NCBI RefSeq assembly: GCF_003428625.2
Contig: NZ_QVQT02000004.1
Span: 124,001 to 188,000, forward strand
Direction: 5' to 3'
Origin: Paracidobacterium acidisoli
Lineage (GTDB): Bacteria; Acidobacteriota; Terriglobia; Terriglobales; Acidobacteriaceae
Length of the DNA: 64,000 nt
Program-made: the position numbers and the translations under genes
Notes under the pieces: model-generated
What the model was told of the DNA's origin: nothing
Seen by the model: the letters and a program-made list of their open reading frames with translations, nothing else
Databases searched by the model: none
Part shown: piece by piece, positions 4,216 to 4,504 of the stretch
Layout of the letters: every line of letters starts with the position of its first letter
How positions within the stretch are numbered: the stretch's first letter is position 1

Positions 4216-4290
4216 TGCGGCTCGATCCATAAAATGGACGCGCATGATTTCCGGAAGAGGACCAGCTTCACAAATTTCGCTATTTTTTTC

Positions 4291-4319
4291 TTGACACACC
4301 TTTTTCAGGACTCTATACA
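4291..4319 (+). promoter_or_regulatory. sigma-70 type promoter of the 22-residue minigene
   Basis: TTGACA at 4291-4296 is a perfect -35 box and TATACA at 4314-4319 is a five-of-six -10 box, separated by exactly 17 bp. Transcription would start near 4326, just before two tandem hairpins and the short lysine-rich coding sequence. It is one of the clearest promoter matches in the window and stands out from the GC-rich surroundings. Confidence 0.8.
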
Positions 4320-4327
4320 TTCGTTAA

Positions 4328-4365
4328 CTGCAGCATTCGTGCTGCAGCTTCGATGTCACATCGAA
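4328..4365 (+). promoter_or_regulatory. two tandem hairpins in the minigene 5' leader
   Basis: Hairpin 1 (4328-4347) is a perfect 8-bp stem, CTGCAGCA/TGCTGCAG, closed by a TTCG tetraloop. Hairpin 2 (4349-4365) is a 7-bp stem, TTCGATG/CATCGAA, with a three-base loop. They are one base apart, begin almost at the predicted transcription start and end directly at the ribosome binding site AAGGGAG (4366-4372). A 5'-terminal stem-loop commonly protects bacterial mRNAs from decay; regulation of translation is a second possibility. Their existence is seen directly; their function is inferred. Confidence 0.7.
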
Positions 4366-4383
4366 AAGGGAGAATAGAAAACA

Positions 4384-4452
4384 ATGGCAACCAAAAAGGC
4401 AGCTAAGAAACCAGCGAAGAAGGCAGCAAAGAAGGCCGCGAAAAAGAAGTAA
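4384..4452 (+). CDS. 22-residue Lys/Ala-rich basic peptide (histone H1 tail-like)
   Basis: The ATG at 4384 is preceded by the good ribosome binding site AAGGGAG, about 11 bases upstream. It opens a 22-codon frame ending at TAA 4450-4452. The product is almost entirely Lys and Ala with one Pro and one Thr, built on KKAAKKPAKK-type repeats like the C-terminal tails of histone H1, bacterial histone-like proteins and lysine-rich HU extensions. More than half the residues are Lys. Promoter, leader hairpins, RBS and terminator all flank it, so it looks like a complete monocistronic gene of roughly 180 nt. A DNA- or RNA-binding, polyamine-like role is inference only. It could alternatively be a small RNA that happens to carry the frame. 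Confidence 0.72.
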   Translation: MATKKAAKKPAKKAAKKAAKKK

Positions 4453-4465
4453 GCGGTCAACAGGC

Positions 4466-4504
4466 AACACAGAAGGGGGACGCGAAAGCGTCCCCTTCGT
4501 GTTT
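4466..4504 (+). terminator. Rho-independent terminator of the minigene
   Basis: A long GC-rich hairpin: the left arm ends in GGGGACGC, the loop is GAAA (4484-4487) and the right arm is GCGTCCCCTTCGTGTTT, with two single-base bulges. It begins 14 bases after the minigene stop codon and ends in a short T-rich run. Confidence 0.75.

What the first reader, a model, noticed from the sequence alone, without database searches (positions are those of the whole stretch)
4291..4504. Self-contained minigene for a 22-residue lysine/alanine peptide with a structured leader
Seen directly: a perfect -35, a five-of-six -10 with 17-bp spacing, two adjacent perfect hairpins (one with a TTCG tetraloop), an AAGGGAG ribosome binding site, a 22-codon frame of almost only Lys, Ala and one Pro, and a terminator with a GAAA loop. 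This is a complete roughly 180-nt transcription unit. Known: histone H1 C-terminal tails and lysine-rich tails of bacterial HU-like proteins use the same KKAAKKPAKK composition. Inference: the peptide may bind DNA or RNA, act like a polyamine, or be a decoy within a small RNA. Such frames are usually missed by gene finders because of their length.
Basis: partly seen in the sequence, partly recalled or inferred. Interest (0 to 1): 0.85.

Follow-up and report, generated by a model that had tools for sequence, protein, structure and literature searches.

The report
Conserved RNA encoding tiny lysine-alanine peptide
A soil-bacterium gene of about 180 bases, missed by standard protein and RNA family libraries, is conserved across Terriglobia: it makes a structured RNA and, in most relatives, a 12-30 residue lysine/alanine peptide, but two genera have lost the peptide and kept the RNA, so the RNA very probably has a job of its own.

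Summary
The block at 4291-4504 (promoter, two hairpins, AAAGGGAGAATAG, K/A ORF, terminator) recurs in 116 non-identical copies from Acidobacteriota class Terriglobia, once per genome (73 of 78 sampled genomes of its family), mostly at one syntenic locus. The ORF is coding: 76% of codon changes between close copies are synonymous against 21% expected. The hairpins keep pairing by compensatory change.

Unexpected: in two genera (42 copies read) promoter, hairpins and terminator persist at the same locus but the ATG and ORF are gone. In one of them a 33-nt block and three GGCAA motifs are nearly invariant while the flanks have diverged. Trees nest these copies among ORF-bearing ones, so the peptide was lost (once or twice) and the RNA kept. 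GGCAA is also enriched in the 3'UTR of many ORF-bearing copies.

Best reading: a dual-output RNA, an mRNA for a polycationic micropeptide that is also a regulatory RNA. Hfq is present, CsrA was not found. Rfam, Pfam, NCBIfam and PDB give no match. Expression, peptide detection and RNA targets are untested; peptide function (nucleic-acid binding) is inference.

The parts
4281..4290 (+). T-rich stretch immediately upstream of the -35, possible UP-like element
   Evidence: sequence; a T-run before TTGAC recurs in relatives
4291..4319 (+). promoter: TTGACA, 17 nt, TATACA (-10 is 4 of 6 to TATAAT)
   Evidence: TTGAC invariant and TATAC nearly so with 17-nt spacing in almost all of 116 relatives
4328..4347 (+). 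hairpin 1 at the expected 5' end of the RNA (8 bp, TTCG loop)
   Evidence: fold; covariation (helices 1-2: 93.5% and 88.2% of cells paired; changes on both sides in 6 of 8 pairs); 61 distinct H1 stems
4349..4365 (+). hairpin 2 next to the ribosome-binding site (7 bp)
   Evidence: fold; 101 of 116 leaders fold into two hairpins; stems TCGATG/CATCGA, TCCAT/ATGGA and others
4365..4377 (+). AAAGGGAGAATAG: Shine-Dalgarno plus strongly conserved flank, predicted unpaired (0.95)
   Evidence: GGGAGAATA invariant in 93 aligned leaders (partly by construction of the scan); GGGAGAATAG only 3 times in the genome; unpaired probability
4384..4452 (+). 22-codon ORF MATKKAAKKPAKKAAKKAAKKK + TAA
   Evidence: coding test; no Pfam/NCBIfam/PDB match
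4386..4391 (+). GGCAAC overlapping the start codon; codon 2 is GCA in 115 of 115 relatives with Ala there
4461..4470 (+). 3'UTR CAGGCAACAC, carrying the GGCAA motif that is kept in ORF-less relatives
   Evidence: GGCAA in 57 of 77 group-A 3'UTRs against 11 after shuffling; AAGGCAACACA near-invariant in ORF-less genus g55
4467..4503 (+). intrinsic terminator, long stem around GGGGGACGC-GAAA-GCGTCCCC, then GTGTTT
   Evidence: the GGGGACGC terminator recurs in relatives; stem covaries in ORF-less copies

Best explanation
The block is an autonomous dual-output small-RNA gene of Terriglobia. A promoter of housekeeping type makes a ~180-nt RNA capped at the 5' end by two hairpins, which probably stabilise it and hold the ribosome-binding site open, and ended by a strong terminator. 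In most lineages it is translated into a 12-30 residue, roughly half-lysine peptide that most likely acts as a soluble polycation on nucleic acid (ribosomal RNA, mRNA or nucleoid). The RNA has a second role independent of the peptide, most likely Hfq-assisted base-pairing or protein binding through exposed GGCAA(A/C) motifs in the 3'UTR and around the start codon. In two genera the ORF was lost and only the RNA role remains. Shown by computation: conservation, coding of the ORF, leader pairing, ORF loss with RNA retention, motif enrichment. Inferred: transcription, translation, peptide target, RNA target, Hfq involvement.
For: 116 non-identical copies in Terriglobia; one match per genome in 73 of 78 family genomes. 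Coding: 766 of 988 base differences between close copies at third positions, 669 synonymous v 209 non-synonymous codon changes, 76% v 21% expected. Leader pairing: 81.5% of cells paired, 89 double-change cells against 13-33 in slid controls. Locus between thiolase/SdaA/CPBP and rsmE-dnaJ. ORF-less but conserved RNA: model matches in 19 of 19 genomes of g32 and 26 of 28 of g55, 42 of them read; g55 block GGGAGCGCAGGCAAACGCAACC-AGGCAAAGCA near-invariant in 20 distinct copies, window identity up to 0.97 against 0.2-0.5 in most of the upstream flank, with single-base indels so no frame is kept. No short K/A gene of this kind relocated elsewhere in 12 genomes of those genera. Trees: ORF-less copies nested among ORF-bearing ones; SdaA tree prefers two losses, one loss not rejected, p-AU 0.12. 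GGCAA: 3.0 per ORF-less g55 RNA v 0.73 shuffled; g32 2.3 v 0.50; group-A 3'UTR 57/77 v 11/77. Codon 2 GCA 115/115 v 246/540 internal Ala codons. Hfq in 6 of 6 genomes.
Against: No expression data of any kind. GGCAA at the start codon may only reflect translation-initiation preference for GCA as second codon. In group B (KKH peptides) the 3'UTR GGCAA is weaker (11 of 39) and the class outgroups do not show it clearly, so the RNA motif may be a later addition, or the ORF-less RNAs may have gained a new function after peptide loss. No RNA target was identified. In g55 the central block does not vary, so its small hairpin cannot be tested by covariation.
Confidence: 0.55

Rival explanations
1. Pure protein gene: a tiny highly expressed mRNA whose only product is a polycationic, histone-H1-tail-like peptide (nucleoid or ribosome associated). 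The hairpins only stabilise the mRNA; in g32 and g55 the peptide became dispensable and the leftover RNA was co-opted for something new.
For: Strong synonymous excess; ORF present in class outgroups, so ancestral; leader looks like a stabiliser with open RBS; composition like H1 tails. The genomes also carry long K/A-rich proteins.
Against: RNA is retained at the same locus in ORF-less genomes with near-invariant blocks; 3'UTR GGCAA enrichment and codon-2 GCA invariance in ORF-bearing copies.
Confidence: 0.3
2. Non-coding regulatory RNA whose ORF is translated only to shape the RNA (ribosome occupancy, decoy), the peptide itself being unimportant.
For: RNA kept without ORF; peptide length and order vary freely, 12-30 aa.
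Against: Amino acids are kept while codons change; composition held to K/A/T/P with length change in whole codons.
Confidence: 0.1
3. Leader peptide of a lysine-responsive transcription attenuator for the downstream gene (rsmE).
For: Short Lys-rich ORF followed by a terminator, as in amino-acid leader peptides (established knowledge).
Against: Downstream rsmE is in either orientation and in group B lies about 3 kb away; about a third of the residues are Ala; no antiterminator seen in the fold; ORF-less copies keep the terminator.
Confidence: 0.02
4. CsrA/RsmA sponge RNA acting through GGA motifs.
For: AGGGAG matches the ANGGA core formally (sequence).
Against: No CsrA (PF02599) in 6 of 6 genomes tested, while control genomes give matches.
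Confidence: 0.01

Closest known systems
Dual-function sRNAs, e.g. VcdRP of Vibrio cholerae (PMC8672173; 29-aa VcdP plus base-pairing segment); SgrS/SgrT, SR1/SR1P (own knowledge)
   Same: One short RNA with a small ORF, a conserved untranslated segment and an intrinsic terminator; an RNA role separable from the peptide.
   Different: Different phylum, no sequence relation found; peptide is a 12-30 aa lysine/alanine composition rather than a defined fold; RNA targets unknown; ORF wholly lost in two genera.
Histone H1-like bacterial proteins (AlgP, PMC9239181; Chlamydia Hc2, PMC2848022) and lysine-rich HU tails
   Same: KKAAKKPAKK composition; length variation by repeat units.
   Different: Those are full-size proteins (Hc2 165-237 aa, PMC2848022); here the whole protein is 12-30 aa, with no Pfam/NCBIfam match.
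Ultra-small basic ribosomal proteins bL37 and bS22 of Mycobacterium (PMC5876184, PMC6133939)
   Same: Very short, very basic, easily missed by annotation (own knowledge).
   Different: Fixed sequences with defined places on the ribosome; here length and order vary. No PDB sequence match.
Acido-1 RNA, RF01686 (PMC2864571), a candidate non-coding RNA motif of Acidobacteria
   Same: Acidobacterial non-coding RNA.
   Different: No Rfam match to the block or its relatives.

Membership tests
Dual-function small RNA | short autonomous transcript with promoter and intrinsic terminator | tested here: met
   sequence and conservation; the transcript itself was not observed
Dual-function small RNA | translated small ORF | tested here: met
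   by comparative coding test only: 76% synonymous codon changes v 21% expected; no proteomics
Dual-function small RNA | RNA function separable from the peptide | tested here: inconclusive
   RNA conserved without ORF, strong for those genera; in ORF-bearing genomes only motif enrichment
Dual-function small RNA | base-pairing with target mRNAs / Hfq binding | not testable with these tools
   Hfq gene present in 6 of 6 genomes; no interaction data
Histone H1-like / HC2 proteins | match to a curated family profile | tested here: not met
   no Pfam or NCBIfam match at E up to 10; low-complexity 22-mers score poorly in any profile
Histone H1-like / HC2 proteins | binds and compacts DNA | not testable with these tools
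   composition only
Ultra-small ribosomal proteins (bL37, bS22) | sequence match to a ribosomal chain of known structure | tested here: not met
   no PDB chain at E up to 10; a weak test for a 22-mer
Known Rfam RNA families | covariance-model match | tested here: not met
   none in the block; one sub-threshold chance hit elsewhere in a locus
Amino-acid attenuator leader peptide | co-oriented regulated gene directly downstream of the terminator | tested here: not met
   rsmE in either orientation or about 3 kb away

The most novel reading that the evidence does not exclude
A class-wide RNA of Terriglobia that is both mRNA and regulator: its GGCAA motifs pair with or capture a cellular RNA or protein partner, its K/A micropeptide (down to 12 residues) acts together with that RNA, for example by neutralising or condensing it, and some lineages have stripped the gene down to a pure non-coding RNA, a natural record of an mRNA turning into an ncRNA.
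Probability: 0.25. Interest if true: 0.85.

Novelty: new variant of a known kind. Interest (0 to 1): 0.66.

Why it matters
It appears to be an undescribed, near-universal single-copy gene of a major soil lineage, very short for gene finders and absent from Pfam, NCBIfam and Rfam. ORF-bearing and ORF-less orthologues at one locus give a natural experiment that separates the peptide role from the RNA role, and culturable relatives (Edaphobacter, Granulicella and others) make it testable.

Tried and rejected
RNAalifold on the mixed 93-sequence alignment predicted no structure, probably because hairpin 2 is out of register between peptide groups; replaced by a stated structure and single-sequence folds. 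Attenuator of rsmE rejected. CsrA sponge rejected. Non-acidobacterial hits of the genome-contig scan (Motilimonas, Marinobacterium, Crenothrix, Pseudovibrio, Lachnospiraceae and others) are chance matches in longer genes. Relocation of the peptide in ORF-less genera: only longer K/A-rich proteins and one 48-aa K/A ORF without this leader were found. Long-range pairing of GGCAAC with GUUGC in hairpin 1 was considered by eye and dropped, since this window's hairpin lacks GUUGC. Papers: no report of MATKKAAKK nor of small RNAs in Granulicella.

Full report
1. The observation. The -10 is 4 of 6, not 5 of 6. The RNA folds far better than shuffles (z = -5.5). The promoter with its spacing occurs only twice in the genome.

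2. Conservation. A DNA search of relatives found the block in full in many genera (best E 8.6e-50). From these and, 116 non-identical leaders were extracted. Two peptide forms exist: group A, not ending in H, 14-30 aa, 77 loci; group B, 12-19 aa ending in H such as MATKKKAKKKKKH, 39 loci. A covariance model of the leader finds exactly one copy in 73 of 78 sampled family genomes. Outside the family the class sample gives five weak matches, all with a K/A ORF, and in the phylum sample no genome outside the family matches. These broad searches used strict filters, so distant absence is not firmly shown.

3. The ORF is coding. Among close pairs 78% of base differences are at third codon positions; 669 codon changes are synonymous and 209 not, 76% against 21% expected for random changes. 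The 13-residue MATKKKAKKKKKH is written in seven different ways. Pairs are not phylogenetically independent, so these counts are descriptive.

4. The leader is structured. For a stated two-hairpin structure on 93 leaders, 81.5% of cells pair and 89 cells carry changes on both sides, against 13-33 when the partner strand is slid. 101 of 116 leaders fold into two hairpins. The GGGAGAATA stretch is invariant in the alignment, partly by construction since the scan required it, and is predicted open.

5. Locus. The gene lies near thiolase (divergent, upstream), sometimes SdaA or a CPBP protease, and rsmE-dnaJ-grpE-hrcA downstream. rsmE may be on either strand or displaced by about 3 kb, so the minigene is autonomous and not a leader of rsmE. 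Pfam confirms the neighbours here.

6. The unexpected part. In genera numbered g32 and g55 the promoter, hairpins and terminator are kept at the same locus but the start codon and ORF are gone. Some g32 copies still show what looks like ORF debris (GCGACAAGAACGGCGAAAAAGAAGACC). In g55, twenty distinct copies share GGGAGCGCAGGCAAACGCAACC-AGGCAAAGCA and GGCAACACA almost without change, with single-base indels that would break any frame, while most of the upstream flank falls to 20-50% identity. The hairpin 1 and terminator stems covary. The rsmE tree puts ORF-less copies in one clade inside ORF-bearing group A; adding Edaphobacter through SdaA suggests two losses, one loss not rejected (p-AU 0.12). 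Since class outgroups have the ORF, loss is the derived state. No short K/A gene of this kind has taken its place in 12 genomes searched.

7. A shared RNA motif. GGCAA occurs three times in each g55 RNA (0.73 expected), 2.3 times in g32 (0.50 expected) and in 57 of 77 group-A 3'UTRs (11 after shuffling), but only in 11 of 39 in group B (2 after shuffling). In ORF-bearing copies codon 2 is GCA in 115 of 115, against 246 of 540 for other Ala codons of the same ORFs and 18 of 105 for other genes. This may be an RNA constraint, a translation-start preference, or both. All six genomes tested have Hfq and none has a detectable CsrA.

8. Interpretation. The peptide is coding and conserved in composition, so it matters in most lineages; the RNA is conserved where the peptide is gone, so it matters there. 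The simplest account of both is a dual-output RNA. Peptide action on nucleic acids is inferred from charge alone. RNA action through GGCAA is inferred from conservation. That the RNA role already exists in ORF-bearing lineages is supported only by motif enrichment; a later co-option in the two genera is the main rival.

9. Known families. No Rfam, Pfam or NCBIfam or PDB match. It works like dual-function sRNAs such as VcdRP (PMC8672173) but matches no tested family by sequence. Literature searches found no earlier description; the held library is incomplete.

Noticed in passing
L222-L247 (genus g55), between hairpin 2 and terminator: The former ribosome-binding site GGGAG now lies in a predicted conserved hairpin GG-GA-GCG-CAGGCAAA-CGC-AA-CC that shows GGCAAA in its loop; g32 copies show a comparable GCGG-TGGCAAAGG-CCGC.
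   Followed up: partly
L010, L041, L113 and similar loci, upstream of the -35: A group of relatives shares about AAAATTGTTGCCACTTTTTCCACTC upstream of the promoter, containing GTTGCC, the complement of GGCAAC; possibly a regulator site or part of the divergent gene's promoter.
   Followed up: no
G000:C9:655629-656032; L047, L260, L261, L264, L267, L272, L273: Long lysine/alanine-rich (histone H1-like) proteins also occur in these genomes, several ending in a shared C-terminal domain (AGKQVKTEMHEMREGKLKSGRSGKKVTNPKQAIAIGLSEARKKG).
   Followed up: no
G000:C1:206359-206379: The GGGGACGC-N-GCGTCCCC terminator stem occurs at only one other place in the genome.
   Followed up: no
L269 (G320:C1:3190820): A 48-aa K/A-rich ORF in a genome that has lost the minigene ORF, without this promoter-leader block.
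   Followed up: partly
G000, G320, G006, G051: These genomes hold three Hfq-domain matches each, one strong and two weaker, suggesting Hfq paralogues in Terriglobia.
   Followed up: no
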